From NCBI GenBank assembly GCA_905250025.1, contig CAJNOJ010000001.1, forward strand, positions 1,633,171-1,697,170: DNA of 64,000 nt. The letters run 5' to 3'. The first letter of the stretch is position 1, and each line of letters begins with the position of its first letter. The stretch is from Adineta ricciae (taxonomy: Eukaryota > Rotifera > Eurotatoria > Adinetida > Adinetidae). Of the stretch, positions 2,427-60,010 are shown piece by piece. Both the position numbers and the translations under genes were made by a program. Below the pieces are notes generated by a model, which did not search any database, was not told where the DNA came from, and saw only the letters and a program-made list of their open reading frames with translations.

Positions 2427-2841
2427 TGAACTATTTCAATACTTGACAGTAATGTTTTTTTCTCTGTATCTTTTATTTTAAATAAATAAAGTCAAGCTCA
2501 TTTCTGACAAAAAAACGATTGCTTTTCCATGGATGTATTCTCGTTTTGAAAACTGTCATATCAGATCAACTGACATGTGGCCTGACGTTACCTAAATAGA
2601 CCACACGTTAGAGGTTGATTAGCAAAAGAAAGCGACGAAAAAAAAACAACAGAAAGAAAAAAAGCGAAGAAAAATGGTGAAGCCTTGCGATTCTTCTAGA
2701 ATGCTCGCAATACTACTCGAATAATTTTCTGTGTGATGGAAAGCTATATATAAATATCCGATTGTCAGATTGTATCAAGCATACAAAAACAACATAATAC
2801 ACTTTCTATTTGTCTGACTATTACTCGCTTCGTTTGAAACA
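2427..2841 (+). promoter_or_regulatory. Heat-shock promoter of the second sHSP gene
   Basis: The first part carries the AATAAATAAA polyadenylation signal of the preceding gene (about 2480). At 2691-2706 there is a clustered heat-shock element: TTC repeated, then TTC-TA-GAA-TG-CTC, which is two perfect units and one near-match in the right spacing. A TATA box (TATATATAAATA) is at 2745-2756, about 90 bases before the ATG at 2842. This is the clearest heat-shock promoter in the window. Confidence 0.7.
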
Positions 2842-35219: not shown

Positions 35220-35755
35220 TCATCCACACATGATTTCACCTTGTGAAATTGTAACGACACCATTACCACATTGAATGTCTAGAAGAAAAACGACGTATTT
35301 ACATATCTGACAGGTCAAAGCAATCACGTCGATTGACAGTTACTATCTCACGCGCGAAATCTGGTCTCGAGATCTTCAGCTGACTTTAAGGAGACGATAA
35401 AATAGGTCGAAGATGATAAGCGGTATCCAATCACGAGAAAAATTTCAATATTACATATTTATCTATCTTTCACACTATCTTCGCTCTCTCGGTCGGAAGA
35501 AGATGAAATTCATTACTTTGACGTTTTTCATGGTGTTTTTCGAGTAATGGTTTTGATTCTGCGGTAGATTCTAAAAGTGAGATGAAAAAAAATCGTATCA
35601 TCGAATATAAACATGCAACTGCACATACGTTCGAAGGTGATTTCGACGGCAGGTTCCGCGACTGATTTGTCGCCAATTGCCATTGCATTGGTTTGGTGTG
35701 CAGCAAAGATGATCATTGTGCATAAAAATAAGCAATAGATGGTTGATGATTGCAT
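35220..35755 (-). CDS. Secreted peptide precursor, C-x13-C family (gene A)
   Basis: First member of the clustered family. Exons in order are 35755-35629, 35570-35517 and 35278-35220; 79 aa. Exon 1 is a signal peptide (LFLCTMIIFAAHQTNAMA) plus an acidic spacer. Exon 2 ends in HHEKRQ, a dibasic Lys-Arg cleavage site. Exon 3 encodes the conserved tail with IQCGNGVVTIS and MCG at the end: two Cys spaced by 13 residues. Cleavage after KR would free a 20-residue peptide that starts with Gln and ends in Cys-Gly, so pyroglutamate formation, one disulfide and C-terminal amidation are all possible. All introns are phase 1. The last intron is 238 nt and could hide another exon. Function unknown. Confidence 0.75.
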
Positions 35756-36075
35756 GATAACAGATTCACGAATTGTATTTAACTGTAAATGACGAATGAA
35801 TGATGAAATCTCTCGCACAAACCCACTTCTATTTATACAACAACACGACCAATCGTTTACTACTTCTATCTCTCTTCCACATATCGAACAATGAGAAGCA
35901 CAAAAGACAAGCCTCGATAGCGATCCATTACAAAGCAACTATTTCGATATCTTCCCTGGATAGATCTTCGAGAACAGTGATTTATGTGACACATATAGTG
36001 ATGACTTCTTAGTCCACTCGGATAGTCATCGGACGATTTACTGACTTGCCTATGATAACTCGAAATAGTCGGCAT
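35753..36075. repeat. Inverted copy of the promoter at 38898-39221
   Basis: The upstream region of gene A is nearly identical, in reverse complement, to the region upstream of the gene at 39219, including the TATA-like TATTTATAC sequence and the bases up to the ATG. The third copy lies upstream of the gene at 46663. The copies differ by scattered single bases only. Confidence 0.85.
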
Positions 36076-36543
36076 GCGTGTGAGAGAGAGAGAAAGAAAA
36101 TCTAAACCGTTTCAATCGCCGAGAAAGCGATGCCATTAAACAACACCAAGACTTCTATATCCTTTCGTTAAAGGAAAACAAATAGAATTATTCATTCGGA
36201 ATAAATTAGCAAAATTATTCCCCGATTAAGCCATTTTGGATTACGCGAATAAAATCGCGTATGAGATAGTTCGAAGTGAATAAGTACATGCCTTGATACA
36301 TGGATGATGATTCATTTGCGAAGGATAATTTGTTCGTCATGTTAGAAAGAGAATAGTTGATGCGGTTATTTTGACTGAAACGAAAAGGCATTGTTTTTGT
36401 ATTTGTTTGAATGAACATCCAATCAATAAATAATGATGCGTAGCCATTTGGCCGATATATACATATATACGTTAGCTGAATAGGTCGGATTAGTTATTCT
36501 GTATTCGAATTCTGGTCAGTTAAATTATTGTGAATCTTTCGCC

Positions 36544-37127
36544 ATGAATTCATCAAATATTTGCTGCTTATTATTGTGTTTCCTGTTCATTTTGAATGCA
36601 CATCAGACAGCTGCAGCACCTGTCGTTCTCGAAATGACGACAAACTTTGCACCTTCAATAGTGTCCGTTGGTAGGCGCAGCATGAATGTGATTTTTCTTT
36701 TCAAATTGTTTGTACACTAGATGACAAGATACAAGATGGAGCACACGAACAACTTAGTGAAAAAAAAGTGAAACGTCGTTGCGGAAAAGTCAATCGTAAG
36801 TTTACTATACCCATTGAAGTTCTCTCGTGATGACACACGATTCAGACTGTAGCTTTATCAGCAGATACACCACGAGAATGATACGAATCTTCTATCAAAT
36901 CAGAATTAGTCTCGGGTCTCACGCATTTCGCTTACCTGACTAATTTATGCATACATCATCGTGAATACTTACTTTTCATTCTAGTTGCCGGTAACTTTGG
37001 CTCTGGAGACGTCAACGGTGAGTATTCATGCTATTTCACATTCCATATCTAAATTCTTTTTTTTCTTTTCATCGCAGTTGACGTAGAAGGCTTTGGTATC
37101 ATCAATGGCCGTATAAATGGCTGTTAA
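36544..37127 (+). CDS. Secreted peptide precursor, GDVN/INGC subfamily (gene B)
   Basis: Exons 36544-36670, 36721-36795, 36985-37017 and 37078-37127; 94 aa; every intron is phase 1. Exon 1 is a signal peptide (ICCLLLCFLFILNAHQTAAA) with an acidic or neutral spacer and has the same 127-nt length as exon 1 of genes A, D and H. Exon 2 ends in KKVKRRCGKVN, a basic cleavage site followed by the first Cys. The last exons encode GNFGSGDVNV and GIINGRINGC, so the mature tail has two Cys about 31 residues apart, the second at the very end. Its last exon differs at one base from the last exon of the gene at 45084. Function unknown. Confidence 0.78.
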
Positions 37128-37678
37128 ATCAGTGTGAACAATCATTGAATGGACATTTCATTGACCTATATGCCATTTTTCACGATAGTTTTCCATCATT
37201 TGTGCTCGTATCTCTTCCAATCGCTTCATGTAGTCTTGTTCACTTCGAATATTTAATAAAGAAAATAATTCAATGTACATCTAATCTAACAATTGTCATT
37301 TGTTCTTCCTATCGGTTGAAAATGTATTCATCAATGAAAGTATGAAAACGAAAGAAAAGTCTCATCAACACTGATATTTACAACTGTAAACGAAATCGCT
37401 GATGTCTGTCCGATTTTCGTTTCGAACGGACTGTTTGTATATAGGATAAAACGAGTTTGAAATGAAGAATGATTTTGATTAGTGTTTGAAGCAGATTTTA
37501 TTTAACTACACAATTCATTAGACAACAAGAGAAGAGAACTATTGATAAATTTGAACAACTAATCATTGGTGACATTGTCACTCTTGTTTTTCGCTACGAT
37601 GATTGGGTTTTGTTTGATTATTTGCAGGATATACTTTGACCAGATATATTGACAACACCGTTAGCAGCATTGGAGCCT
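37000..37678. repeat. Left arm of inverted duplication (pairs with 44525-45215)
   Basis: Includes the last exons of gene B, about 490 bases between the two convergent genes, and the last exon of gene C. The reverse complement matches 44525-45215 closely, with mostly single-base differences in the middle and more divergence at the edges. The two arms are therefore a duplicated convergent gene pair in opposite orientation. Confidence 0.85.
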
Positions 37679-38467
37679 ATGAATAGAAAAGGACTAATCT
37701 GCTTGAATCGTAAAATTGACGGATTAAATCACATGGAATGATGAGAAAAACGTAAAGAAAACATTGCCACTTAAAAGTTTAGAAATATGACTCAAGTACT
37801 GACCGTATTGCAAATCATTCATACTTGAACATTCTCTCTTACAGGGGAAGAGATCAAAAATAGCTAGCGATAGATTTTTCGTACTTCCGATAGCTCAAAA
37901 AAAGCAAAAAAGTCATACTTATATTATGCTTCTACTAGCAGGGGTAGACCTTACTCTTAAGTTTATGCGAGTGTAAAGCGCGTATTGGTCATGTTCTAAA
38001 ATTAAATTTTCACATACCTTTCGATGAACAACCTTGAGAATTACCACTTTGTCCTGAAATGAGAGCAAAATTTTCATAGGATATGTAGAACGAGTGAAGT
38101 GTCATGGCAGGAAATGAATCAGTTGAAAATATAGATCGTCTACTACAGAGTGCAGTATAAGTTTACGCTCTACAGAGGTTATTTGAGTAGAGATCTCTCC
38201 TGACAAATACTTTCAAATCAGGGAACGATTAAATATTTTGGATACTTTACCATTTGCTGACATTTGCACTCCCGCCAAAAGTTTTTGAATATCCAGTCCT
38301 GCAATTTGAACTATCGGTTGATTAAGTGATGCTGATTTCAACATTTCCTCTGGCGTGCTGGTAGCAGGTGCGCTTGATGTATTTTCCACTGGATTAGCAT
38401 GTGTTCCGTACAAAACACAGGCCATCACAACGCAGAAAATCAAACACGAAACATTAAACGAATACAT
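37618..38467 (-). CDS. Secreted peptide precursor, SGQSISCK tail (gene C)
   Basis: Exons in order are 38467-38251, 38053-38018 and 37676-37618; 103 aa; phase-1 introns. The signal peptide (LIFCVVMACVLYGTHANP) is followed by a Thr/Ser/Ala-rich spacer and a short amphipathic region (IAGLDIQKLLAGVQ). The middle exon gives GQSGNSQGCSSK and the last exon SNAANGVVNISGQSISCK. Compared with the C-x13-C members, the first tail Cys is replaced by Ala, and a Cys one exon earlier may take its place. The last exon is 59 nt, the same length as in genes A, F and H. No dibasic site precedes the tail. The last intron is 341 nt, so another exon is possible. Confidence 0.72.
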
Positions 38468-38630
38468 GTTAGAAGGTGTACAAAAGTATAGCGAATAATC
38501 AAATATATTCAGCCAACATTTACACACATGCATATATATATATATATGTATCACCGAAACGGACATTCATTACCGTTTTTTCTTTTCGACAGGCATCGAA
38601 ACGAATATACAGACAATGCTTTTTCTCGTT

Positions 38631-39299
38631 CTTTCCAACATGCTATCATGACGAACAAATTATTCGTCATATATGATTCATCAGATCCATCACAAACCAT
38701 GTACTTCTTGAACTACCTTGTGCATCGCTCATTAAAATAGACCTCATTGCAACACGAGTCATCTCGACCACATTCATCTGTCGTTGTTCAGAAATATAGG
38801 ATTTCTATCGACATAAGCTATTCCATTTCAGGAATATCCTCACAAAACTGTTCATGTCGAATGACGTCACTCTCCTCTTTTCTTCTTTTTTTCGATACAT
38901 GTCGACTGCTTCGAATTATCATAGGCAAGTCAGTATATCGTCCGACGACTATCCGAGTGGACTAAGAAGTCATCACTATATGTGTCACATAAATCACTGT
39001 TCTCGAAGATCTATCCAGGGAAGATATCGAAATAGTTGCTTTGTAATGGATCGCTATCGAGGCTTGTTTTTTGTGCTTCTCATTGTTCGATATGTGGATG
39101 AGAGATAGAAGTAGTAAACGATTGGTCGTGTTGTTGTATAAATAGAAGTGTGTTTGTGCGAGAGATTTCATCATTCATTCGTCATTTACAGTTAAATACA
39201 ATTCGTGAATCTGTTATCATGCAATCATTCAGTGTCTACTGCTTATTATTATGCAGCATGATTATCTTTGCTGCACATCAAATCAATGCAATGGAAACT
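38631..39299 (+). repeat. Direct repeat copy 1 (pairs with 46067-46743)
   Basis: About 670 bases nearly identical, in the same orientation, to 46067-46743. It covers the whole intergenic promoter and the first 81 bases of the coding sequence of gene D. Identity stops abruptly just after the signal-peptide codons. Small indels occur in a TC-rich tract near 38880. Confidence 0.9.
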
Positions 39300-39846
39300 G
39301 AAGACAGATTGGTCACGGAAGTTCCATCAAAAGTCGACTTTGAACGTAGGAAGAGTTGCATTTTTAAATAACGATACTGAAGTTTTTATTGTATTTGCAG
39401 ATACTACCGTAAAAACATGGCCACTACCCGAAAAAGTTCATGAAAAACGCGGATCTATTGCTGCCGGTATGTCATCTACGTCAGATTGCGATCGGGAATG
39501 AATCTAAATAGTAGCTAAATATATATCGAGAAAGGATGCTTGAATATGTAAATAGTTGTGCAACGAAAGGAAAGCATAATGATGAAGAAGTTCACTAGAT
39601 GCAGAGGAAAGATAGGAAAATACTGTTGCGATTGATCAAATAGGTGAATTAATTTTTTGTTGTTTTTTAGCTGCCGTTTCAGGTTCAGGCTCACGTAGAC
39701 CTGCTCGAGTTCGAGTCAACAGACCATCCAGTAAGTGTCAATCAAAGTAGTTTAGAATGCGTAACTTAATTGTTTCTTTTGCAGATATCCAATGCGCTAA
39801 TGGTGTTGTTACTATTACCGATGGTCAAATCACATGTGGCAAATAA
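39219..39846 (+). CDS. Secreted peptide precursor, C-x13-C family (gene D)
   Basis: Exons 39219-39345, 39401-39466, 39671-39730 and 39785-39846; 104 aa; phase-1 introns throughout. Exon 1 gives the signal peptide LLLCSMIIFAAHQINAME. Exon 2 has PEKVHEKRG, a dibasic site in the same place as in gene A. Exon 3 is an Arg-rich segment (GSGSRRPARVRVNRPS) not found in gene A. The last exon gives NIQCANGVVTI...ITCGK with two Cys 13 residues apart. The terminal Gly-Lys could be trimmed and amidated. Its promoter and first 81 coding bases are shared with the gene at 46663. Confidence 0.8.
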
Positions 39847-40410
39847 TTGTATCGGCGAATGATATGGACAATTTGATCAAATTCAATATTTTTCGTACAC
39901 ATTTTCTTTCTTTCGCTGTTGTTAACATGTATTAATCATCAATAAAATATCACTCATCAAATAATAAAACCATTTTCAATGTGACTGAATAAAATCAAGA
40001 CAAAAGGTACTCATTCATGTTCAGAGTGTCAAATGTATGTGTTGTTGCAGCTTTAAGAGCCATGTATTGTAAACAATTGCGAGAGAAATTTGCTATCCCT
40101 CTCTTCTTTTGAAGCTGTTTTGCGACCACGCGTATTCACTCGCGGGCGTCAGATTATCTAGCAAATTATCTTGTCATCGTGAAAGCTATTATATATGACA
40201 GTGAATGATCACTGTTCTTTAAGGATCATGTTCACATTTCTATTAGTGAATAAATAATTTCAAAGATTTAGATATATACATATATCTAATTATTTTCTTT
40301 ATTCACTATTCAAGACAGAAATAAGGACAACAGGTGGTACAATTAAAGATTATCATGAAAAATGGCATGTTCGCAGGTAAAATGTTGTTCCATTCTTTGC
40401 CCATCCCAGT
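39847..40410. other. Intergenic within the peptide cluster
   Basis: No intact gene. The part from about 40290 to 40410 resembles, with decay, the 3' flank of genes B and I (for instance the GTGAAAAATGGCAT stretch), so it is the 3' flank of the pseudogene next to it. AATAAA signals of gene D are near 39942. Confidence 0.5.
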
Positions 40411-41060
40411 TTAACAAAAACCTCTACCACCATAATCATGTACCCTCGCTGTAAAAAAAAGCAACGAAACAAGTTGAATACTTACCATCGATATCGCCTA
40501 TCGAAATGATACTTTCTCTCGCTGGAAGGCAAAAAAATACATATAGTGATGAACATGGCGTTAGCCGTTTCATTCAGCTATTGATCAGTAAGATCTTGAA
40601 TTGAGGATGAACACAATACTACATTGATCACCCTGTTAACTACGATGGTGTTCATCTCTTCGTTTGTGAATGTATCCAGCATATGATTAACTCAAGCGAG
40701 ATTTCACTCTTCGAACGCACTGTGTACTCGATTTATAAATATTATTAATTATGTTAGACTTTGTTCTGCCCTATCCTAAATGAGCTTTGCATGAATGCGG
40801 TACACTTACCATAGCTTCACGTAAACGATGTTGTCGTTTGAGATTCCTTTCGACCACTCCTAATTACTTGTGATTCATCTCGGATCTTGTCGTCTAGTGT
40901 ACAAACCATTCAACAAAGAAACATTCGATCTACAATATGCCTACTAGTTAGAACTGTCGAAAGAATAAGATTGTCCGTCGCTCCAAACGATCAAGAGACA
41001 CAATAGTAAGCAGCAAATATTTAATGACTTCACAAAAAAGATTCACAATAATTGGACTGG
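40411..41060 (-). pseudogene. Decayed copy of the GDVN/INGC peptide gene
   Basis: Runs on the minus strand. Parts of all exons of a gene B-like precursor can be aligned: a signal-peptide exon remnant (about 41060-40950) whose start codon region reads GTCATTAAATATTTGC where gene B has an ATG; an exon after TGTACACTAG (about 40895-40812) beginning with the codons for DDKI but ending in an early TGA unless the frame shifts; a 30-nt exon (40515-40486) encoding IGDID; and a last exon (40448-40411) ending in GFC and TAA. The missing ATG and the frame break argue for a pseudogene. A recently altered gene with another start cannot be excluded. Confidence 0.6.
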
Positions 41061-41949
41061 TCAAAGTTGAACTATAGGCCAAATTGTGAAATCTATAGTC
41101 AACTAACAGTCTATATAAACACGGACGAAAGGATCATTCAGTACCTTTTCTCTTTTCGATATTTCTTGAAGCCAATACACAAACAATAACTTTTCGTTTC
41201 TGTCGAAACAACTATTTTATTTCTAACACGCTAACTTGACGTGGCGAACAAAGCATCGTTCGTACACGATTCGTCAATTCATGCCAAAAGTCATTAAGAT
41301 TGTCTACTGAGCACTTTTTAGCGTGTTTCTTATTGACCACAGACAGTTGCGACATGTGTTCAATCCTCAATATGATGTCACGAAATGAAATAGGGAAGGA
41401 TTTTTCTACACAGGCAATGCTGGAATGACGTTCGTGTGAATACACACAAGTTTTTGAAAGTTTTCAAGAGTGATATATAGTCAGGACATGCATTCTAAAC
41501 CATTCCGGACTAAACTTCATCCCACTTCTACCTTTTGACTGCTCCTCATCGAGTTAAAATTATCGGATAACATTGAATATAGAAAAATGTACTTTTCAAA
41601 CTTTCTTAGTATGATATGGTTCTTATACAATGATCGAAAGATTTTGAATGAATGCGATCGGTCACGATAGCGCTGTATAGAATAGTAGATGTGTTAGAAC
41701 TAATTAATTCCTTGATGAACATCGATTTTTGCCCGACTCTAGGCTGATTAGATCCATTCTTACTGTACTTAAGCGTTGACCATTTTCTGAACACTCGATA
41801 TGCCAAGGAAAATTAGTAAACAAATGATCTGAGAATTTTAGACAGTGTGCACACAATTATATTCTTCATTTATTAGGTTGAGAATTAGTACAAGAAATTG
41901 ACGAGAACAAAATTGAAATAGAAAGTGTATGGTTGCCATCTTCTTGGAA
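41061..41949. other. Intergenic with one unexplained open frame
   Basis: A minus-strand open frame (41445-41212) encodes a protein-like stretch with DFWHELTNRVRTM near its end, but it has no ATG start and an in-frame stop a few codons upstream. It may be an exon of an unrecognised gene or a remnant. Nothing else is seen. Confidence 0.3.
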
Positions 41950-42660
41950 CTATTGTAATTTACAGACGATTCTGCCACGCTCCATTGTAATCACGCCATT
42001 ACCACAGACTGCAGCTAAACGAAATAAGAAACGAAGACGATCAAACATGATTGTTCGAAATGACTATTGAAAAACTTACTTTTAACTACTCCAACACGAC
42101 GTTGTCGTTGTAAAGCTAAAACAAAAGGAAGTCATGAATAAACGGATATTAGAAATCAATTAAAATCGAAGGCTAGTTTTGAATGAGAACGACCAACAGT
42201 CTGTAAGATCTTAGATTTATACAAAATCCGTCTTGCATTCAGCGATGGAGCTTCGTATGAGGAACTGAATGCCCTCTTCAAATTTCTCGCGTAGCTCTCC
42301 GACTCGTTGTCAGAAGATCTAGAGATGAATTTGTCTGCCAATCGATTTCATAACTACACCAACTTATTCATATGTTCGACAATCAAACTACTCTCGTAGG
42401 AATATCATTCACTTACGAATATTAGAAACATCACGCTTTTTTCTAGATGACAATTGCACATTTACGCCCGTACCCACCGTTTCGTGTCCTCCTACAATGA
42501 GACGAATGTTTTAACAGCATCCGACAGCAACACAGTTACCTGTATTAACATGGATCGATGAAAGCCCTGGTCCTCCGATATGCACATTTGCATTGGCTTG
42601 GTATGCAGCGAAAATAATCAAGACACAAAAGGCTAAGCAGTACGCAATGGATGATTGCAT
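41950..42660 (-). CDS. Secreted peptide precursor, C-x13-C family (gene F)
   Basis: Exons in order are 42660-42540, 42491-42417, 42115-42080 and 42014-41950; 98 aa; phase-1 introns. The signal peptide (LAFCVLIIFAAYQANA) is followed by a Gly/Val-rich segment, a strong furin-type site RKKRD at the end of exon 2, a second basic stretch QRQRR in exon 3, and the tail AVCGNGVITMERGRIVCK with two Cys spaced by 13. The tail has two more residues after the usual Lys. The overall plan matches genes A, D and H, but apart from the signal peptide and the tail there is little similarity. Confidence 0.8.
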
Positions 42661-43440
42661 GGTAAAGGGTACGTAAGGCGAAATTAATAAAGAAATTCGA
42701 TAGAAGGCGAATGATGAAATTTATTCAAGGGACATAAACATATATACATTCCGAAGACCAATCGTCTCTTATTTCTTTCTTAAAGCGAATGATAGGAAAA
42801 GAAAAGAAAATCATGCCCTAGACGAATAGTCCCTGTATAATAGGTCGCTTTTGCTCTTTCTTTAATCGAAAGTTCGAGAACGGTGCTTTCTATGGTAAAC
42901 ATGATTGTTTTTAGTTAATGCACGTTTCGGTCGGACGATATCATTCTTCGCCTATGATGATCTTAGTATAATGGACTTGTGTACGAGAAGAACGAAGGAC
43001 GTGACGTCATTCAATATAAATAACTTTGTCCAGAGGTTCATCAGAAACATAAAATTGTTCAATCGAAATTATCTAATAAAAGTCTTGTTCACCAAAATGG
43101 ATGGAGATGAATGTTAATTAGTTAATTTGAGGTAGAGAGAATTGCTTTGTTCATATATGTGAAGTCGTATGGATGGGCAGATGACCGCTATCGGTTAAAT
43201 GAGTCATGTGGGGGAAAAGTATTTGTTTTTTGATTCGTCATGTTAGTATGTTAGAAAGAGAAGAATTGCCGACGTTGGTTCGGCTGAAGTGAAAAGATAT
43301 CATTTATGTTCGCATGAATATTGGAGAGGAGAAGAAAAACGATTGACTTCAATTTATAAGTAAGTGATCGAACGTTAGTAGTATTCGTATCATCATTACT
43401 TCATAGGACGATTCATTTAGCTATTGATATTTATCAACCT
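42661..43440. other. Intergenic between divergent peptide genes
   Basis: Promoter region for gene F (minus) and gene G (plus). The part next to gene F resembles the other family promoters weakly (TATATACAT near 42745, ATGATGAAAT). No coding exon is seen. Confidence 0.4.
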
Positions 43441-44585
43441 ATGAACATGACTTCATTGACACTGTATTTCACTACGATCTGCACGGTTCTCATGTCTCTG
43501 ACATATAGATCGGAGGGTGCTTTTTTACGATTTGGACCAGAAGGTTTACAATTAGGTGGAGGTGCTGATGGTAGTGCAGGTTTTCTGAATATTCCATTCT
43601 CAACCGGTGGTGTCAAGATAAACTCGGCCGTAGCCGGGGGATTTGCTAATTCGTTGGTAAACGTACCAATGGTGCAGCGATTTGGATCACGATACAATCG
43701 GTATGTGTATCCAACAAGCACTAGTAGACCATTCGCGCGAACGAATTGCGATTGGTATTATCGCTGGGGTCTTCCTTATTCAAATTTATTCAATGGTCAA
43801 ACTTATCAACGAGGATATGGATCATCTGGTGCTCAATGGGGAAGCCAAACAGGCACACAAACCGCTTCTTCAGTAAATTCTCAAAGTATTCGTCCTTGGT
43901 TTTTTAACATCAATCGATTAGCTAATGTTCAAGTAACTCCACCCAATATTCCTATGACCGGTATGTAGTCTGTCAAAGCGGTTTAGTTATGTCATTTCAA
44001 CCAGCCTATCCTGGATTTCTAATGGCACATAAATCGTCCAGTTGTATCCGTCTTGAAACAATGAGGAATGGTGGAGAAGCACCTATAGAACATATGATTT
44101 CTTTGAACTTTTCTTTTGCATCGACCATATCTGCTACAATTTTTTTTTCGTATCTTGCATTGATCTGAATCTTTGTTTATGTTTTAGGCTTTGCTAGTTC
44201 TGGAAGCGGATGTTCAAGAGGAGGTACGTGATAATTGCTCAAATTAATATTTCCTTCGACTAGCATGTGGATACAATGATCGATGTCAGATTCACTTCTA
44301 TCTTGCTTTTTCTCTTTCTTTGACACGTCTATACATGAATTACCTTTGATTAAAACTTCAATTAGTAAGCCATAAAGCATTGCCTCCGACGATGATTCCA
44401 TTTCAAATAAAAACTAAATGTTTCTCGTTTATTTTAGTTGATGCAAATGGTCAACAATGTAACTATCTGAACGACTATTTTTGATCTATAGACTCATGCG
44501 CACTAAATTTTTCTTTCTATTTATAGCCATCAGTGCGGCTAACGGTGTTGTCAATCTGTCCGGCCAAAGTATTTCCTGTAAATAG
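43441..44585 (+). CDS. Secreted protein with large first exon and SGQSISCK tail (gene G)
   Basis: Exons 43441-43960, 44188-44223, 44438-44458 and 44527-44585; 211 aa; phase-1 introns. Exon 1 is far longer than in the other members. It has a signal peptide (LTLYFTTICTVLMSLTYRSEG) and then a Gly-rich, Tyr/Asn/Gln-rich secreted region with AFLRFGPEGL right after the signal peptide. The small later exons give FASSGSGCSRG, VDANGQQ and the tail SISAANGVVNLSGQSISCK, nearly the same as in gene C. Here too the first tail Cys is Ala and a Cys lies one exon earlier. It looks like a family tail joined to an unrelated secreted body. Function unknown. Confidence 0.75.
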
Positions 44586-45215
44586 TCAACTCAATTACAA
44601 TGATCATAGTGTAGAACAAGAGTGACAATGTCACCAATGATTAGTTGTTCAAATTTATCAATAGTTCTTTTCCTCTTTTCTCTTGTTGTCTAATGAATTA
44701 TGTAATTAAATAAAATCTGCTTCAAACACTAATCAAAATCATTCTTCATTTCAAACTCGTTTTATCCTACATACAATCAGTCCGTTCGAAACGAAAATCG
44801 GACAGACATCAGCGATTTCGTTTACAATTGTAAATGTCAGTGTTGATGAGACTTTTCTTTCGTTTTCATACTTTCACTGATGAATACATTTTCAACCGAT
44901 AGGAAGAACAAATGACAATTGTTAGATTAGATGTACATTGAATTATTTTCTTTATTAAATATTCAAAGTGAACAACACTACATGAAGCGATTGGGAGAGA
45001 TACGAGCACAAATGATGGAAAACTATCGTGAAAAATGGCATATAGGCCAATGAGATGTTCAGTCAATGATTGTTCACACTGATTTAACAGCCATTTATAC
45101 GGCCATTGATGATACCAAAGCCTCCTACGTCAACTGCGATGAAAAGAAAGAAAATGAATTCAGATATGGAATGTGAAATAGCATGACTACTCACCGTTGA
45201 CGTCTCCAGTGGCAA
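44525..45215. repeat. Right arm of inverted duplication (pairs with 37000-37678)
   Basis: Reverse-complement partner of 37000-37678. It carries the last exon of gene G, about 498 bases between convergent stops, and the last two exons of the gene at 45084. The intron before the final exon of that gene is also conserved. Confidence 0.85.
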
Positions 45216-45873
45216 AATTACTGTCCGCAACTAAAATGAAAAGTAAAGATTCACGATGATATATGGAGAAACTGATACAATAAACGAAAATGTTTTTGTC
45301 CATGTATCAATCGTGTGATGCATCAATCGGTATATCTCTCATTAGATATTTATGATCGATGAAATCTTTGACGAAGAGTGCTTAAGAGATTGAACTGCTC
45401 TGCTTGTTAGCTATCAAAAAGATCATTTATTTGGTTCCTGCATCTATCGACTGAAAGAAGTGTTTAGTCATCTCTTAAATATTTGAGCACACTGATTATG
45501 ACAAGCTGCAGTTTGGATTTTGTCTTATCACAAGAGAACTTCGAACGATTGCAATTTACTTACAGTTGATCCAACCGCACGGTCGCTTCTTCGCCTTGTT
45601 TTTCGCAGGCATTCTCACGTTTGCCCTTGTTTGTCCCATATGATGCACATTTCCGACAGGCACTTTTACACGGGATTCATCCTCTCTTTGGTCATCTAAT
45701 TAGTAAAGGGACAATTCAACAAGGAGACTTGTGTTTGCACTGTGCTTACCGCCTGTCATCATAGAAGGATCAGAATCGCTCATCTCGTCCATAGTGCCAA
45801 TTACTGCAGCTGTTTGATGAACATTTAAAGCCACCAGGACACATAATAATAAGTAAAGAATTAATAATTTCAT
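45084..45873 (-). CDS. Secreted peptide precursor, GDVN/INGC subfamily (gene I)
   Basis: Exons in order are 45873-45750, 45695-45564, 45230-45195 and 45133-45084; 113 aa; phase-1 introns. The signal peptide is LYLLLCVLVALNVHQTAA. Exon 2 is larger than in gene B and ends in a basic stretch KNKAKKRPCGWIN, a cleavage site followed by the first Cys. The tail has SNFATGDVNV and GIINGRINGC, so the predicted mature peptide is about 34 residues with two Cys, one near each end. The last exon is identical to that of gene B except for one base (Glu to Gly). Confidence 0.8.
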
Positions 45874-46066
45874 GATACAACAAGATCAATCAATATTGAA
45901 GCAAACAGAGTTGGGATATCTCGTGAATGACTAAACCTAGTCAGTCAACATCTATACATATGTTTCTTTTCCAAACGTTTACTTAACACTTTTCTTTTTC
46001 GATATTTAGTCAGGCAGCAATGATCGTTTTTCGTTTCAGTCGAAACAATTACAATAACTATATTCT

Positions 46067-46743
46067 CTTTCCAACATGCTATCATGACGAACAAATTATT
46101 CGTCATATATGATTCATCAGATCCATCACAAACCATGTACTTCTTGAACTACCTTGTGCATCGCTCATTAAAATAGACCTCATTGCAACACGAGTCATCT
46201 CGACCACATTCATTTGTCGTTGTTCAGAAATATAGGATTTCTATTGACATAAGCTATTCCATTTCAGGAATATCCTCAAAAAACTGTTCAGTCGAATGAC
46301 GTCACTTTCCTCTTTTCTTCTTTTCTTCTTTTTTTCGATACATGTCGACTGCTTCGAATTATCATAGGCAAGTCAGCATATCGTCCGACGATTATCCGAG
46401 TGGACTAAGAAGTCATCACTATGTGTGTCACATAAATCACTATTCTCGAAGATGCTATCCAGGGAAGATATCGAAATAGTTGCTTTGTAATGAATCGCTA
46501 TCGAGGCTTGTCTTTTGTGTTTGTCATTGTTCGATATGTGGATGAGAGATAGAAGTAGTAAACGATTGGTCGTGTTGTTGTATAAATAGAAGTGTGTTTG
46601 TGCGAGAGATTTCATCATTCATTCGTCATTTACTGTTAAATACAATTCGTGAATCTGTTATCATGCAATCATTCAGTGTCTACTGCTTATTATTATGCAG
46701 CATGATTATCTTTGCTGCACATCAAATCAATGCAATGGAAACT
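46067..46743 (+). repeat. Direct repeat copy 2 (pairs with 38631-39299)
   Basis: Second copy of the promoter plus signal-peptide block, in the same orientation as the first. It ends inside exon 1 of the gene at 46663, after the codons for Met-Glu-Thr, which is about the predicted signal-peptidase site. Confidence 0.9.
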
Positions 46744-48192
46744 ACTGAAAAATTTGAAACTACTTTTCCATCTGAAATCACCTCTGAACGTAAGTTGAAT
46801 TACCTGCTTGGATTCAACGATAAGAAGCATTTATTTTCACTCTAGGTGCTCCGGAAAAGGTTATGACATTACGTGATGTACTTATTCACAAAACTAGAGG
46901 CGCTGCTGCCGGTAAGTGATTTTCCTCTGTTTGAAAGGCTTGTACTGAGAATGAATGCATGAAAGATATGATAGTCTGGGGGGGGGGGGGGGGGAAGAGA
47001 GGGGGGGCCTGGAAAGTGAAAAAACGAAAAACGTAGGGGTGGGGTGGGAGGAATTGACTAAGGGATGAATTTTTGGTCGACTTGTTTTTGGTGTATTCGT
47101 TACCCCTGTAGTAATTGAAGTCACTCGCTTCATCGTCCACGATCGGACGGTAAACGTCGGCAACCCATTCGGCTACGTTACCGGCCATATCATACAGACC
47201 GAAGTCGTTTGGCGGGTACGATTTAACTTTGTTTGTGATATCGGCACCATCATCAGACCAACCTGCGATTCCACCGTAATCTCCTTTTCCTTGCTTGAAG
47301 TTGGCCAATTGGTCACCTCTAACCTGTCTTTTTCCTGAACGGGTATAGCTACCAGACCAAGGATATTTCTTTTGTCCTTTGTAGATGTTGTATTCGCGTT
47401 GACCGACGTCGGCAGCAGCGGCATATTCCCATTCTGCTTCGGTTGGCAAACGGTACTCTGGCAAAATAAAACCTGAGGTACGTTGTGCGTAGACATTCTT
47501 TTGTTCCTTAACGTTGCCGTCTTTGTCTGCTTTGCCTGGTTTAGACAAAGAGTTTCTCCGGCCTTTCAAAACGATCTCCTCGTCACCGCCCAAAGTCTTG
47601 GTTGGTGCAGCCAAATAGGTTTCTGTGCTAAAGGTCTTATCGGCACTTACCGCAGTAACTTTAGAGCCTTTTTTCAAGTATCCTTGCTGCTCNNNNNNNN
47701 NNNNNNNNNNNNNNNNNNNNNNNNNNNNNNNNNNNNNNNNNNNNNNNNNNNNNNNNNNNNNNNNNNNNNNNNNNNNNNNNNNNNNNNNNNNNTGTTTGTT
47801 CTGTTTGGGGTGGGGGGGTAGGGAGGGGAGGAGGGGGAAGAGGGGGGGGGGGGGGGGGGGGGGTGGGGGGGGGGGAGCGATGTAAGAGGGTGCTAGGTAA
47901 TGGAGAAATCTAAAACAGTAGTGATGCGCTGGAGAGAATTAACTAAGTGATCAATTTTTGTTCTCTTTGTTTTAGCTTCATCTGTATCGGACGATATTGC
48001 TGCTTCTGCTGTTGCCGGTGATCCAGATGCGGAAGCAAGTGTTTCCGTGGAAGGTGAAGGAGTCGATTGTAAGTACCGAACACAATGGTTTCCCTCTTCC
48101 TTTGAGTACGTAAATGTACTTTCTCTTTTGTAGCCGTTCAATGTGGTAATGGTCAAATTACAATTGCAAAAGGTACAATTGCCTGCAAATAG
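46663..48192 (+). CDS. Secreted peptide precursor, C-x13-C family (gene H)
   Basis: Exons 46663-46789, 46846-46911, 47976-48068 and 48134-48192; 114 aa. All introns are phase 1, and exons 1 and 2 have the same lengths as in gene D (127 and 66 nt). Signal peptide LLLCSMIIFAAHQINAME; then an exon with LIHKTRGAAA, an acidic Ala/Val/Asp/Glu exon (AASAVAGDPDAEASVSVEG), and the tail VQCGNGQITIAKGTIACK with two Cys 13 residues apart. It lacks the Lys-Arg site of gene A. Intron 2 is 1064 bases in this assembly because it holds poly-G tracts, an N gap and bacterial sequence; the true intron is probably much shorter. Confidence 0.78.
46978..47092. repeat. Poly-G tract and garbled copy of the intron end
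   Basis: A G run (46978-46994) is followed by more G-rich sequence and then by a stretch (47037-47085) that looks like an error-rich copy of 47932-47975, the true 3' end of the same intron. This fits a G-rich intron that was sequenced or assembled badly. Confidence 0.7.
47083..47692 (-). pseudogene. gldJ: Fragment of a Bacteroidetes gldJ-like gene (probable contaminant)
   Basis: On the minus strand, one intron-free open frame encodes part of a formylglycine-generating-enzyme-like domain as found in gliding-motility lipoproteins GldJ/GldK. Recognisable pieces are FILPEYRLPTEAEWEYAAA, NDFGLYDMAGNVAEWVADVY and RPIVDDEASDFNYYRGN. GC content is clearly higher than in the surroundings. The frame has no start, runs into the N gap on one side and into poly-G on the other. 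It sits in an intron of a host gene. I read it as a contaminating read joined during assembly; a real bacterial insertion is much less likely. Confidence 0.85.
47693..47792. other. Assembly gap (100 N)
   Basis: Exactly 100 N, the usual placeholder for a gap of unknown size. Confidence 0.99.
47793..47885. repeat. G-rich tract
   Basis: G runs of up to about 20 bases, broken by single T or A. Together with the run at 46978 they flank the bacterial fragment and the gap. They may reflect a true poly-G stretch in the intron or a sequencing artefact. Confidence 0.8.
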
Positions 48193-49150: not shown

Positions 49151-49709
49151 ATGTATTTCTTCACCATTCTAGCTTCCTTGATCTGCCTTCAATTAATCTC
49201 GACTGTTACTAGTGGTAGGAATTCGAGATGCTTCTTTTTTTGCTTTCTCACTGTTTCATTTTTGTTTCAAATTCATAACTCAAGACTCAAATGATGCTAG
49301 CCGAAGTTCGCAGCCAAATACTTTAATTCAACCTTCAACAGTAATTGATAACGAAGATATAACCAATTATGACAAGGAGGATGACGAGGACTACTTCGTT
49401 GTACCGCGAGCTGCAGAATTTTTAAGATTTGGTCGTCAATTTCCATCGACATATTCGTCATTTCTTCGTTTTGGTCGTTCCCAACCTACCTTTCTCCGAT
49501 TCGGTCGTCCTGATCCCAATGGAGCTGCTTTTCTTCGCTTTGGCCGACAAGCTCCAAGCTCCGCTTCGAGCAACTTTCTTCGATTCGGTCGACAGTTTCA
49601 ACAAGCAGCTTCGAACAATTTTCTTCGTTTTGGTCGCGAAGCTCAACCAGCAGCATCAAGCAATTTCCTCCGATTCGGTCGTAAAGGTGAATTCTTACGA
49701 TTTGGTTAA
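49151..49709 (+). CDS. FLRFamide neuropeptide precursor, eight copies
   Basis: A secreted precursor of FMRFamide-like peptides. Exons 49151-49214 and 49285-49709; 162 aa; phase-1 intron of 70 nt. Signal peptide [21 protein letters not shown], then an acidic spacer ([12 protein letters not shown]), then eight FLRFG units. The first seven are followed by Arg: [92 protein letters not shown]. The eighth, GEFLRFG, ends at the stop. The Gly gives the amide, and single Arg is the main cleavage site. All copies are N-terminally extended, so at least seven different FLRFamides are predicted. Confidence 0.95.
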
Positions 49710-49990: not shown

Positions 49991-51943
49991 TTATTCAGAT
50001 GTTAATAAACTCAACGTCTGCTGTAAATTTTTTACATCGGGATGTTCAGGAGGCAATACTTGACGTCGATATTTCAAAGCTTGCTCATAAAACATTTTCG
50101 CTTGAGGAAATTTCATATCTAACTCGTGAATTAATCCAAGATTAAAGTATGCGGAAGCCAAAAGCTCTTTTCGAAATGGACAGGTTTTCTCATCCATGTC
50201 CGATACAATAGTTACTGCACGAAATCCATGATCCACTGCATTGGAAAAGACATTTAACCGTTCGTAAGATACTCCCACATTCGAAAATATCGGTGCGAGA
50301 CATGCATAATCGACGGAAAACCCGTCCGGTGTGGTTTGTCGGGCGAATTCTAAACCGTATTTATATTCGCTAATAGCTTTTCCGTATTCACTCATACAAT
50401 CGTAAATCACACCCATATTATAATTCATCAGAACCGTACGCAATTGTCGAATTTTTGAAGAGTAGGTTTTTTCAAATAGTTTGCGCGTTGATTTGAATTG
50501 ATACAGTTTGTGTGTAACGGACGACGCGAGTTCAGGTAAAGTGGACTCTTCAAGCTTATAAGTTAAAGTTAAGTAATGCACTATATCAGTATATTGCTCA
50601 TCCTTTTCACCAATTAACGTCAGATAGATATGCCAAGACGCAGGATCTTCCGGAAACTGTTCAAGTTTATCAATTCGATATATACTTGTCATGGATATGA
50701 GATAGTCATTTTCATGAACAAATTCACTGTCTGCACCAATGTTCGCAAACGGAACATTCGGTTTCGCATCATGCGGAATTGTGATGTTGAGGATTGCATT
50801 GATCTGAATGGGATTGATGATAACGGTGTCTGTTGCTGGTGTTGTTGCAGGCGTTGTTGCAGGCGTTGTTGCTGGCGTTGTTGCTGGCGTTGTGGCTGTT
50901 GCTGCGGCTGGTGTTGCGGCTGGTGGTGGTGGTGCTTGATATTGCAGAAATGTCAAAGGTATTGCCTTTTCGGTGTTAGCAGAAGTAAATTGATTAATAC
51001 ACATCAGTCCTCCTTCGTTTAGTCTGATTTTTTCAAAATCATCAAATGATAATAATTGATATGAATACAACACTAAATCTTTCGACATTGAAATGCTCTG
51101 TTCTTCATGTAAATTTGTCAGTTGCTTGACAAGTTGTTGTATGAACGGACTCATCGTACATAGAGTAAATAGATCATTGATTTGTAGAGCACGATTAACA
51201 ATAGTTTGAAGGAAACTGTCTCGTGTATACCACCAAACAGGATCATATTGCGTATAGACCTTTTCTAAATCATTGATAAAATGCTGCTGATGTGGACTCG
51301 AATATTCAATTCGACAGTAACTAATCATATCTTCAATTTTAATTAAATTCATATTCGATAAAATCAATTTGATTAGAATAGAATGAAGAACCGGTACGTC
51401 TTGCCGATCACCCAAAGATAAATCAGGATTTTTCCTGAAAATGTCGAATTGTAATTGTTCTTCGTCAGATATTGATGATTGGGCGGCAAAATATTTTCGC
51501 AAATAGTCACATATCTCATCGATTTCGGTATAAACTCCACGAATTTTATTGAATTGTTTCGCCCATTGATCGTATTTTGATTTATTAAAACAGAATATAT
51601 AAACCGAATGTAATTGATGAAGACCATGAACTAATGGAACAAGTTGAGTACCCATTTGACCAGACACAATCAAGCAAACATTACTCGCATGATAGATAAA
51701 ATCTTGACATGCATCTAACTCGCTGAAAGTATGGATCAACTGCCGTTTTCTATTCACAATACGTGTCAATTGTATTAAGGTATTCACATCATCGCTAGCA
51801 TTTGTATCTGAGCCGATCGATGCATCACACCAGACCACAACGAACGGAGGATCAGTTGGGTCATCGACAAGACTTGTCTTCGACGAAGAACCGACAATAG
51901 GATGATATTTTGGCAATCGATCTTTACCATGCAGATTACCCAT
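49991..51943 (-). CDS. TPR protein with degenerate ADP-ribosyltransferase domain
   Basis: A single-exon 650-aa protein with the bdelloid ART/TPR plan. The N-terminus MGNLHGKD allows myristoylation at Gly2. Residues about 40-170 form an unnamed alpha/beta region (FVVVWCDASIG, CLIVSGQMG, YIFCFNKSKYDQW). Then comes the ART-like region with VWWYTRDSFLQTIVNRALQ (about 237-255), LVLYSYQLLSFDDFEK (about 290), CINQFTSANTEKAI and FVHENDYLISMTSIYRI. Where the paralogue at 60011 has Tyr-Arg-Ser-Gln this protein has Tyr-Ser-Tyr-Gln, so the NAD-binding Arg is missing and activity is unlikely. A TPATTPATT repeat interrupts the domain. The C-terminal part (about 480-645) has TPR/kinesin-light-chain-like repeats ending in LPPEHPDVKNLQQTL. 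Confidence 0.85.
   Translation of the reverse strand: MGNLHGKDRLPKYHPIVGSSSKTSLVDDPTDPPFVVVWCDASIGSDTNASDDVNTLIQLTRIVNRKRQLIHTFSELDACQDFIYHASNVCLIVSGQMGTQLVPLVHGLHQLHSVYIFCFNKSKYDQWAKQFNKIRGVYTEIDEICDYLRKYFAAQSSISDEEQLQFDIFRKNPDLSLGDRQDVPVLHSILIKLILSNMNLIKIEDMISYCRIEYSSPHQQHFINDLEKVYTQYDPVWWYTRDSFLQTIVNRALQINDLFTLCTMSPFIQQLVKQLTNLHEEQSISMSKDLVLYSYQLLSFDDFEKIRLNEGGLMCINQFTSANTEKAIPLTFLQYQAPPPPAATPAAATATTPATTPATTPATTPATTPATDTVIINPIQINAILNITIPHDAKPNVPFANIGADSEFVHENDYLISMTSIYRIDKLEQFPEDPASWHIYLTLIGEKDEQYTDIVHYLTLTYKLEESTLPELASSVTHKLYQFKSTRKLFEKTYSSKIRQLRTVLMNYNMGVIYDCMSEYGKAISEYKYGLEFARQTTPDGFSVDYACLAPIFSNVGVSYERLNVFSNAVDHGFRAVTIVSDMDEKTCPFRKELLASAYFNLGLIHELDMKFPQAKMFYEQALKYRRQVLPPEHPDVKNLQQTLSLLTSE
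50826..50935 (-). repeat. In-frame TPA/TTPA-coding repeat in the ART/TPR gene
   Basis: A tandem array of 12-nt units (about GTTGTTGCTGGC on the plus strand) encodes Thr-Thr-Pro-Ala repeats and a Pro/Ala-rich stretch inside the ART-like region. The length is probably variable between alleles. Confidence 0.7.
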
Positions 51944-52735
51944 TTTGATTGAAATCTATGTACAAAACATCATCTTATGAATATTGATTTGCATTTCGTA
52001 CTTACTTTGAGATTCGACAGTGAAGAAAAAAACGTATCGAACTGCTGTCTCGATATGACGTTCTTCTCGACGTGTTAGGAATAGAACGAAAAAGAAAAAG
52101 AAATTCCCGACGTAGTACGTAATCATACACGCAAAGAATGATATTAATCTTGTTATTTTTATATTAGTCTCGACATGCTTCAGTAATTTCGTCATTTGTT
52201 GATAAAACAGGATGCATCAGTTTTATTTTCTATCCTGCTCTATCTCGAAATATATATACTAACATTTTCAAGACTCGATATAAGAGTTCTTTTATTTCTT
52301 TTACAGAACGCTGCAGCTATCAACTCGAGTTTGATTTATCAACTTTCTCTGCTTGAGGCTGCATATGACTGCAGACAACATCAAAGTCCGGTTTTTCAAA
52401 GGTCTGAACAATGAATTTTTGTCATAGAATATATTTCTTCATTCCGATAACATAATCAAGAAATATGGCTTCATTTCCGCTTGATATTATGCAAAAATCA
52501 ATCGAAATCGGGCATGCTCATACTGAAAGCGCTTTGAATGCTCTGAGAGCAAATCCCATGAGAGTTTATATAAATTCGTTCCAGGTTCTACAGCAAGTCG
52601 GTGTGTGTAGCTTTACAAACATCTGATCGATGCTTTGTGTGACTAAGGAACATCTGTTATCATGAAATAGAACTCTTCTTCGTTTCTATACATATGTTTA
52701 TTAATCGCAATTCTATTATAAACAATCTACAAGTG
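51944..52735. other. Intergenic, no gene seen
   Basis: Between the ART/TPR gene start and the GPCR gene end. A possible 5' UTR exon of the ART/TPR gene may lie on the minus strand near 52010. No coding exon is seen. Confidence 0.35.
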
Positions 52736-54498
52736 TTAATGAGATAGAACAGCTATAGTAATTTTATCATTCTCTTCACAAAGAGTCGGATGTGATGATA
52801 GAAGACCGTTTATTTCTGTATTACCACCTGTTGTTACTATTCTTCGTGTTGAATTTTTGCCGTTAACAATCGACGATTTTCTTTCGCCATTTCGTGAGAT
52901 TAATGATGATTTTGTTCCAAGGAAATTCCATGTTTTCTGTCGATGTTTCGAAAATGTTTTACAGAAATGGTCCGTTAAAACAATGAAGAACAATGGATTT
53001 AAAATGCCTTCAATATGACTAAGTAGAACAACAAGTTGATGTGCATATGTCAGAAAATGTCTTAGTAATGGTCGACGACGTATCGTTTCATCCAGTAGGA
53101 AACTTGTGTAAAATTTAAAGATCCAGAACGGTGTATAACAGATGAGAAATGATAAGACAATACATAGGACAAGCTTAACTCCACGTGTACGTTTCTTGAC
53201 AATATTTAATCGCGTTAATTTCTGCTTTCGGTTCAACCATTGACGTAGAAATCGAAGTAGTTTCAATGAAAATACGACTATTATTGAATATGGTATGATA
53301 AATGCCATGATATAAAGAACGATTTCGTAGATAAGTAGAGTATGCTCGGAGAGAACAGATCGACATGTTAAGATTGATGTTGTCAGATTTTTCGTCGAAC
53401 TTTTATTTTGATCATAAAGAAATGTGTAGAAAATGAATGGATATGGTAACAAGATTCCAACTGTCCAGATGACAATCACCGATGCAAATGTGATGAAGAA
53501 CCGAACTTTAGCTGACAATTTCGATCGAGCATCGATGTAACGTTCAACGCTCAATGCTGCGACTGTATAGACAATGACCTAGAAGAAATTTCAGATGATT
53601 TCGAAGGTGTTTTGCGAAAATCATTTGCAATTGTTCGCATGAATGTTTTTCTCTAATGAAATCAGAGCTTCTGTCATCATTAATAGATTTCCTTCTAATG
53701 AGATAGTTATCAACTCATTTGGATATTATTGTTATGGTGTTTATTAATAATACCATTGTCCTTGATTCGTTGTTTTTCGCTGTCATGTTTTTATGTATGC
53801 ATTTATAAACAAGAAGTTAGTTTCAAGTATTAATAAACACTTGGCAATTATGTTATTCTGTTTTTCTTTCGTGGTTATATATAATTATGCCTTTTGATCC
53901 GATATCAGCGATTTTTTTTTCAAAGGATATTATAGACACTTGTTTGAACTTCTTCACGACTTGCAGTTGAGCACAAACAAAAAAAAAACTTCTTTTAAAC
54001 TTTTCCTGTTTTCAGTGTACTAAAATGTCATGTTTCCTTTGGGGTGGAACAAATGCAGACTCAGTCAGCTTTTTATGTGTATTTTATTCCTCGTCACTGA
54101 ACAAGGAAATGGACGTCGCAAATCAACCGGCTCTCATTCGATTAAAGAATGAAACGTATCTAATCTTACCACAGTACAAAGAACATCGATGGATAAACTA
54201 AATTTGCATCCAAATTCACCAAACACCCAGCTTGGAGTAAACAAATTAGTACTAAAGAAGATAATTCCCACTAGAAAGAAACAAGAACGAAAGAAAAACT
54301 TGGAAATCTTCAATTCATCCGAGACATACTGGCATGAATGATGTCGGCAATCGCTAAATTAACAACAAGAATAGCAATTGACGTTTTGTCTCGCCTTGAA
54401 CGAATATAAACAATAGCTAGAAGATTAAGAATGATTGTTCCAAGAAATATGGCAGCACTGGTTAGCACAAATAGATTCCGCAAGATAATATTATTCAT
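52736..54498 (-). CDS. Class A G-protein-coupled receptor, peptide-receptor type
   Basis: Exons in order are 54498-54330, 54270-54170 and 53578-52736; 370 aa; introns 59 and 591 nt. Seven hydrophobic segments. TM2 has the LAIADIIHA Asp. The extracellular WVFGEFGCKF carries the Cys at the top of TM3 that pairs with extracellular loop 2 (TCRSVL). The DRY motif reads ERY (ALSVERYIDA). TM6 has LICYTPFWIFKF and TM7 has GILNPLFFIVLTDHF, the NPxxY region with Phe. The cytosolic tail is Ser/Arg/Lys-rich. The layout fits rhodopsin-like receptors for neuropeptides. The ligand is unknown; an FLRFamide gene lies 3 kb away, but that is only proximity. Confidence 0.87.
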
Positions 54499-59762: not shown

Positions 59763-60010
59763 TACTTTTTGTTGTAATGAAATTTTTTGATAAATCAGCT
59801 ACTTATCAATAGTGTAGTTCGGCTCTTTTCTCGCTCCTTAGAACGTTACTTTTTTTGTCACTGCATCATCAATGACTCCTTCTGATTGCTTGACACCGTC
59901 TAACCAATAGAGAATCAGACGAAAGTTATCGTATTTTTTAGTACGGAGAATAGAGACATTTCATATATTCTTCATCGACTCATAAACCTTCAAATCTGAT
60001 CTTTTCAACT

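What the first reader, a model, noticed from the sequence alone, without database searches (positions are those of the whole stretch)
35220..48192. Clustered family of two-cysteine secreted peptide precursors
Seen in the sequence: at least eight small genes plus a pseudogene share an exon plan (signal peptide in exon 1, all introns phase 1, tiny last exon) and end in one of two conserved tails: C-[GA]NG-x-[VI]-T-[IM]-x13-C, or GDVN...GIINGRINGC. Most have Lys-Arg or similar basic sites before the tail. The Cys spacing of 13 is kept in four genes (A, D, F, H); in two others (C, G) the first Cys is Ala and another Cys sits one exon upstream. I do not know a described family with these tails. Inference: the products are cleaved, disulfide-closed peptides, with defence, toxin-like or signalling roles all open.
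Basis: partly seen in the sequence, partly recalled or inferred. Interest (0 to 1): 0.9.

Follow-up and report, generated by a model that had tools for sequence, protein, structure and literature searches.

The report
Rotifer cluster of two-cysteine secreted peptides
A rotifer genome holds a cluster of small secreted-peptide genes that match no described family, where some promoters and tail pieces look copied between neighbouring genes while the middles differ, and whose likely use is defence or signalling outside the cell.

Summary
The window is the end of a 1.7-Mb contig of the bdelloid rotifer Adineta ricciae. All eight gene models translate; all 22 introns are GT-AG and phase 1. A second haplotype carries the same eight genes plus the pseudogene: one in-frame coding indel against 17 intron indels, pooled dN/dS 0.45. 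A second cluster on the same contig and one single gene bring the models to 24.

No described family matched. Protein searches found only A. ricciae and two unnamed contigs, while the neighbouring FLRFamide gene finds A. vaga and Rotaria.

New here: four head-to-head pairs with 751-789-bp spacers; three spacers hold TGACGTCA, as do most promoters of the second cluster. Proximal promoters (D/H, part of A/D) and the B/E tail exon match better within a haplotype than between alleles; gene bodies do the reverse: modular gene conversion, barring assembly error.

Best reading: co-regulated secreted precursors, often cut at basic sites, ending in a disulfide-closed tail; defence most likely, unproven.

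The parts
35220..35755 (-). Gene A, exons 35629-35755, 35517-35570, 35220-35278; 79 aa; ...KR|QNIQCGNGVVTISQGEIMCG
   Evidence: no deposited identical protein among those returned
36544..37127 (+). Gene B, 4 exons; 94 aa; GDVN-type tail GFGIINGRINGC
   Evidence: identical to P0005
37618..38467 (-). Gene C, 3 exons; 103 aa; Cys one exon upstream, tail ANGVVNISGQSISCK
   Evidence: identical to P0007
39219..39846 (+). Gene D, 4 exons; 104 aa; KR, then an Arg/Pro-rich stretch, then CANGVVTITDGQITCGK
   Evidence: identical to P0003
40947..41033 (-). Pseudogene: exon-1-like signal-peptide remnant (GTG where the others have ATG)
41950..42660 (-). Gene F, 4 exons; 98 aa; KKR and RR sites, tail CGNGVITMERGRIVCKLQ
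   Evidence: no deposited identical protein among those returned
43441..44585 (+). Gene G, 4 exons (520, 36, 21, 59 nt); 211 aa; tail ANGVVNLSGQSISCK
   Evidence: contained whole in P0012
44438..44458 (+).
45084..45873 (-). Gene E, 4 exons; 113 aa; GDVN-type tail GFGIINGRINGC
   Evidence: identical to P0006
46663..48192 (+). Gene H, 4 exons; 114 aa; tail CGNGQITIAKGTIACK; intron 2 swollen by a foreign insert
   Evidence: identical to P0002
35756..36543 (.). Head-to-head spacer A|B, 788 bp, no TGACGTCA
38468..39218 (.). Head-to-head spacer C|D, 751 bp, TGACGTCA at 38862
42661..43440 (.). Head-to-head spacer F|G, 780 bp, TGACGTCA at 43002
45874..46662 (.). Head-to-head spacer E|H, 789 bp, TGACGTCA at 46297
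38630..39310 (+). 5' repeat: promoter of D and most of its exon 1, in three pieces repeated at 46066-46754 (promoter and exon 1 of H) at 96-99%; the within-haplotype site pattern covers the proximal promoter and only the start of exon 1
37057..37537 (.). 3' module: tail exon of B and downstream DNA; inverted copy at 44674-45154 (tail exon of E), 96%

Best explanation
The locus encodes a lineage-restricted family of secreted precursor proteins. Shown from sequence: an N-terminal hydrophobic leader of signal-peptide type; phase-1 exon modules; two cysteines kept in the C-terminal part, the second followed by at most three residues; head-to-head gene pairs; TGACGTCA in three of four shared promoters; purifying selection overall. 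Inferred: a prohormone-convertase-type enzyme cuts at the dibasic site where there is one; C-terminal Lys is trimmed and Gly, where present, is turned into an amide; one disulfide closes the tail, in the CGNG type as a hairpin with a Gly-containing turn. A bZIP factor of the CREB/ATF kind switches the pairs on together and the products are released as a mixture. The most likely use is as extracellular effectors against microbes or competitors (defence), because the family is multi-copy, clustered, found only in A. ricciae and unnamed contigs, and most varied between leader and tail. Ectopic gene conversion keeps proximal promoters (D/H, part of A/D) and the B/E tail exons alike within a haplotype, while the bodies follow allelic descent.
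For: Genes real; dN/dS pooled 0.45, tail 0.33 (0.14-0.82), leader 0.31 (0.16-0.60), middle 0.52 (0.37-0.69). Leader: most hydrophobic 11-residue stretch N-terminal in all 24 models and a (-3,-1) site by a permissive rule in all 24 (no dedicated predictor). Residues after the last Cys are none, G, GK, K, KK, VG, VGK, AGK, N, KLQ or ELQ. Basic site directly before Gln-x-Ile-Gln-Cys in A, I and P0009. Pairing and element. Modules: D/H upstream 48 within-haplotype sites against 0 allelic, D/H middle 0 against 47; B/E tail 24 against 0, B/E upstream 2 against 101. Restriction: against the control. Arg/Pro-rich stretch before the tail in D and K.
Against: No expression, peptide or activity data were available. 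C, G and H have no dibasic site. Predicted pieces after the last dibasic site are not generally cationic (A -1, B -1, E -2; D +3, F +3). dN/dS is not above 1 overall, as an arms race might give; a few short segments exceed 1 on very few changes (A middle 1.24, C tail 1.61, E leader 1.58). A kept C-terminus with a varied N-terminal part also fits signalling peptides. TGACGTCA is missing from the A|B spacer in both haplotypes and from I2, P and R, 2 of its 5 window copies lie outside the cluster, and its 12-letter form is hardly commoner in the genome than its reversed control (34 against 31). Exon 1 of D/H follows alleles at 9 of 11 informative sites. The AlphaFold model of G' is uninformative (mean pLDDT 32).
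Confidence: 0.42

Rival explanations
1. Peptide hormones or neuropeptides: the C-terminal disulfide loop, amidated in the GVVTI group, is the receptor-binding part and the N-terminal extension varies.
For: Leader, dibasic sites and a C-terminal G or GK in A, D, I, P, J; Gln after the basic site in A and I could give pyroglutamate; kept C-terminus with varied N-terminal part; CRE-like element, common in neuropeptide promoters (recalled).
Against: Found only in A. ricciae and unnamed contigs, while the neighbouring FLRFamide precursor is found in A. vaga and Rotaria; many copies; C, G and H lack dibasic sites, and G is over 200 residues long.
Confidence: 0.25
2. Structural or adhesive secretion (mucus, cement or pedal gland, surface coat): beta-rich tails that self-associate or cross-link by disulfides.
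For: Ala/Gly/Ser-rich middles in D, H, J, K and a long Gly/Ser-rich G (by eye); multi-copy and lineage-restricted.
Against: Small sizes, exactly two Cys after the leader in 7 of 8 window proteins, basic sites directly before the tail in A and I. The described rotifer biopolymer Rotimer is predicted to be mainly a SCO-spondin-like protein (PMC12154537, search listing only).
Confidence: 0.2
3. The within-haplotype likeness of promoters and tails, and the swapped gene pairs of the second haplotype, are assembly errors at near-identical repeats rather than gene conversion and inversion.
For: Repeats are 96-99% alike; the scaffold shows a likely join problem at 46979-47878 (poly-G, 100 N, bacterial gldJ piece).
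Against: Module copies still differ by a few per cent, so they were not simply copied by the assembler; tract edges are sharp and differ between A/D, D/H and B/E.
Confidence: 0.2
4. Gene-model artefact or decaying genes.
For: One member is a pseudogene in both haplotypes.
Confidence: 0.03

Closest known systems
Single-disulfide beta-hairpin host-defence peptides (arenicin, thanatin, bactenecin; recalled)
   Same: Short C-terminal stretch with one predicted disulfide, at the end of a secreted-type precursor.
   Different: No sequence match among solved structures: none for tail A at E up to 10, one chance hit at E 1.8 for the 19-member profile; predicted tails of A, B and E are acidic; no Pfam domain above cut-off in the 7 proteins scanned.
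Pro/Arg-rich plus Cys-domain crustacean peptides (penaeidin type; recalled)
   Same: D and K carry an Arg/Pro-rich stretch before the Cys loop.
   Different: Two cysteines only; only D and K show the stretch clearly; no Pfam match for D (K was not scanned).
Disulfide-closed amidated neuropeptides of animals (CCAP, elevenin, allatostatin C types; recalled)
   Same: Leader, basic site, two Cys near the C-terminus, Gly for amidation in part of the family.
   Different: Loop of 13 residues (11-31 across the family), no shared motif known to me, found only in A. ricciae and unnamed contigs.
Disintegrin and DUF4215-type CGNG motifs (recalled)
   Same: The letters C-G-N-G-V-V.
   Different: No such Pfam match in 7 proteins at E up to 1; spacing and remaining cysteines differ (recalled).

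Membership tests
Neuropeptide / peptide-hormone precursors | Signal peptide | tested here: met
   Hydropathy and a permissive (-3,-1) rule only, no dedicated predictor: 24 of 24 models
Neuropeptide / peptide-hormone precursors | Dibasic cleavage site before the bioactive part | tested here: inconclusive
   5 of 8 window genes
Neuropeptide / peptide-hormone precursors | C-terminal Gly (or Gly-Lys) for amidation | tested here: inconclusive
   A and D of the 8 window genes; also I1, I2, P and J elsewhere
Neuropeptide / peptide-hormone precursors | Mature peptide conserved across related species | tested here: not met
   against the control; limited to annotated proteins that share 5-residue words
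Neuropeptide / peptide-hormone precursors | Neuronal expression, receptor | not testable with these tools
   No expression data
Beta-hairpin antimicrobial peptides | Sequence similarity to a known member | tested here: not met
Beta-hairpin antimicrobial peptides | Cationic mature peptide | tested here: not met
   Of the 5 window genes with a dibasic site D and F are +3, but A, B and E are negative
Beta-hairpin antimicrobial peptides | Disulfide-closed hairpin | not tested
Beta-hairpin antimicrobial peptides | Antimicrobial activity | not testable with these tools
   Needs a bench test

The most novel reading that the evidence does not exclude
In an ameiotic animal, a lineage-specific secreted-peptide system is kept modular by ectopic exchange: bidirectional promoters with a CRE-like element are homogenised at one end, disulfide-tail exons at the other, and inversions through the promoters re-pair the genes between haplotypes, so that private middles are recombined into a co-induced peptide mixture.
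Probability: 0.35. Interest if true: 0.75.

Novelty: new variant of a known kind. Interest (0 to 1): 0.58.

Why it matters
Peptide systems of gnathiferans (rotifers among them) are poorly sampled (PMC8557429, passage read), and the fungal-challenge study of A. ricciae says that it did not closely explore its metazoan genes (PMC11258130, passage read). This family gives a concrete set of genes to look up in that public RNA-seq. If the defence role holds, home-grown peptides would act beside the horizontally acquired antibiotic-type genes. The sharp exchange tracts between paralogues in a clonal animal would also show how such a lineage can shuffle gene parts without meiosis.

Tried and rejected
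Known-family matches: Pfam (7 proteins: A, C, D, E, F, G, M; B and H not scanned), NCBIfam (7 proteins: B, C, D, E, H, G inside P0012, P0009) and solved structures (the 19-member profile, P0012, tail A) gave only hits far below cut-off or at chance level. A disintegrin-like reading of CGNG was dropped because no such match appeared. A glue reading on the Pfam hit New_glue (E 0.29, 11 bits, cut-off 31) was rejected as chance. The second cluster as an ohnologue of the first: among window ORFs of 40 aa or more, the only match outside the family was a weak GPCR one (22% identity, E 1e-4), so this stays open. The protein tree of 20 rows (G, G', M and I2 left out) is unresolved, 2 of 16 inner branches firmly supported; no use was made of it. 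The structure model of G' has mean pLDDT 32, so no fold search was run. C7:827729 and C65:94435 (E 0.4 and 0.7) and C104:294783 (E 0.1; not looked at further) were taken as chance hits to the leader and left out of the family count. Literature searches for the tail letters and for secreted peptides in Adineta gave no paper; in the listings (titles and abstract starts) I saw none on this family.
Full report
WHERE. The window is the last 64 kb of contig C1 (1,697,170 bases) of a 130-Mb genome. Database proteins on contigs of exactly 1,697,170 and 635,175 bases are named as from Adineta ricciae, so the organism is that bdelloid rotifer.

THE GENES. Eight precursors were rebuilt from the window. 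All 22 introns are GT-AG and all are phase 1. B, C, D, E and H equal deposited A. ricciae proteins, and G with a 21-nt microexon lies whole inside the deposited protein P0012; A and F had no match among the proteins returned. A. ricciae gene models were made with BRAKER and RNA-seq in PMC7943196 (passages read); if these proteins are that set, which I infer, this is indirect transcript support. The gaps between the last two Cys are 13 (A, D, F, H), 20 (C), 27 (G with the microexon), 30 (B) and 31 (E). Seven of 8 proteins have exactly two Cys after the leader; G has a third at residue 103, which its allele lacks.

SECOND HAPLOTYPE. Contig C27:326-389 kb aligns to the window flanks at 92.9% and to the cluster in pieces of 84-90%. 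A. ricciae homologous gene copies differ by a median 4.55% (PMC5916493, passage read), so C27 is most simply the homologous copy, more diverged in the cluster. It carries all eight genes and the pseudogene piece. Coding sequence shows 1 indel (12 nt) in 2751 columns, introns 17 indels in 2695 columns (H intron 2 and the stretch between G exons 2 and 4 left out). Pooled dN/dS over 8 pairs is 0.45, bootstrap 0.36-0.58 (G without its microexon). Single segments with values above 1 rest on very few changes (A middle 1.24, C tail 1.61, E leader 1.58).

MORE MEMBERS. A second cluster lies at C1:328.7-353.8 kb (genes I1, I2, P, J, K, L, M modelled, I1 and I2 giving the same protein; N and a 5'-damaged copy Q seen but not modelled) and a single gene R on C196. 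That makes 24 models: 8 in the window, 8 in C27, 8 elsewhere. L links the two tail types: it has GDVQ like the GDVN of B and E, but a CNWGMVQGGGVSC tail with spacing 11. The genome was searched with single exons only, so the count is a lower bound.

ARCHITECTURE. In the window the genes stand head to head as A|B, C|D, F|G and E|H with spacers of 788, 751, 780 and 789 bp. In C27 the pairs are H'|C', E'|D', F'|G' and B'|A' with 770, 764, 770 and 803 bp, so two pairs have exchanged partners; L|M and J|N in the second cluster are 867 and 990 bp. TGACGTCA occurs 5 times in the window against 1.86 expected by shuffles, 4 of 100 shuffles reaching 5: as a count this is weak. Its placement is stronger: 3 of 5 fall in the four spacers (4.9% of the window; binomial 0.001), and 4 of 4 in C1:320-360 kb fall upstream of family genes (10% of that stretch; 0.0001). 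These tests were made after seeing the placement, and the promoters are partly duplicates, so the events are not independent. In C27 3 of 6 copies in 80 kb lie in the spacers. Upstream regions of the two clusters are otherwise at shuffled likeness in the four pairs compared (45-50% against a mean of 47%). A 16-letter pattern written from these loci occurs 6 times in the genome, all six at this family, and its reversed control 0 times. A 12-letter form occurs 34 times against 31 for its control and is not specific. The A|B spacer lacks the element in both haplotypes, as do I2, P and R within 700 bp.

MODULES. Site patterns in four-way alignments (window and C27 copies of two paralogues) show clean tracts. 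D/H, 700 bp upstream: 48 sites unite paralogues within a haplotype, 0 unite alleles, 29 unite D with H' and H with D', all 29 in the distal part, as the exchanged partners predict. D/H exon 1: 2 against 9, the 2 at its start; middle 0 against 47; last exon 0 against 18. A/D upstream 400 bp: 18 against 14, in two blocks with the 18 nearer the gene; A/D exon 1: 0 against 21. B/E: upstream 2 against 101, exon 1 1 against 23, middle 2 against 23, tail with flanks 24 against 0. A/H and C/G were not put through this test. The simplest reading is gene conversion within each haplotype, confined to the proximal promoter (D/H, part of A/D) or to the tail end (B/E). Assembly mistakes at near-identical repeats remain possible; the window has one likely problem of that sort, the gldJ insert below.

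RELATIVES. A profile of 19 members found 11 proteins at E up to 10, ten from A. ricciae and one from an unnamed contig. G found 3 at E up to 1, two from A. ricciae and one from an unnamed contig. As a control for coverage, the FLRFamide precursor about 1 kb away found 44 proteins, among them A. vaga and several Rotaria. The search needs shared 5-residue words and annotated proteins, so small unannotated genes in other bdelloids would be missed.

FUNCTION. Shown: secreted-type leader by hydropathy and a permissive (-3,-1) rule, purifying selection, kept Cys pair. Inferred: cleavage (dibasic site in 5 of 8), trimming or amidation, disulfide, joint regulation by a CREB/ATF-type factor, defence role. 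I put the secreted two-Cys precursor reading at about 0.9, processing to a disulfide-closed peptide at about 0.7 and the defence role at about 0.4; signalling is next. The charge of predicted tails is mixed, which does not speak for a plain membrane-lytic peptide.

COMPARISON. The family works like the known kind 'clustered secreted disulfide peptides', but no membership in a described family was met: no Pfam match above cut-off in the 7 proteins scanned, none in NCBIfam in 7, none among solved structures by sequence. Names of hairpin, penaeidin-type and neuropeptide families are recalled, not taken from a call. Four tail strings occur in none of the held papers.

Noticed in passing
46979-47878: Intron 2 of H holds a poly-G-flanked insert with a 100-N gap and part of a Flavobacterium-type gldJ gene (best relatives 83% aa, a Flavobacteriaceae and a Flavobacterium MAG; GldJ model E 3e-100 though below its full-length cut-off). 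It is absent from the second haplotype; most likely an assembly join of bacterial contamination.
   Followed up: yes
49151-49709: FLRFamide neuropeptide precursor (Pfam FARP) with eight FLRFG units, about 1 kb beyond the cluster; relatives in A. vaga and Rotaria.
   Followed up: partly
52736-53578: Rhodopsin-family GPCR (7tm_1) near the FLRFamide gene.
   Followed up: no
35220-48192: Inner gene order differs between haplotypes by inversions whose ends lie at repeated promoter or tail stretches.
   Followed up: partly
1433-3819: ORFs that look like two small heat-shock (alpha-crystallin-type) genes side by side, by eye only.
   Followed up: no
49991-51955: Long single-ORF TPR protein (Pfam TPR); a similar-looking gene at 59954-61427 by eye.
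   Followed up: no
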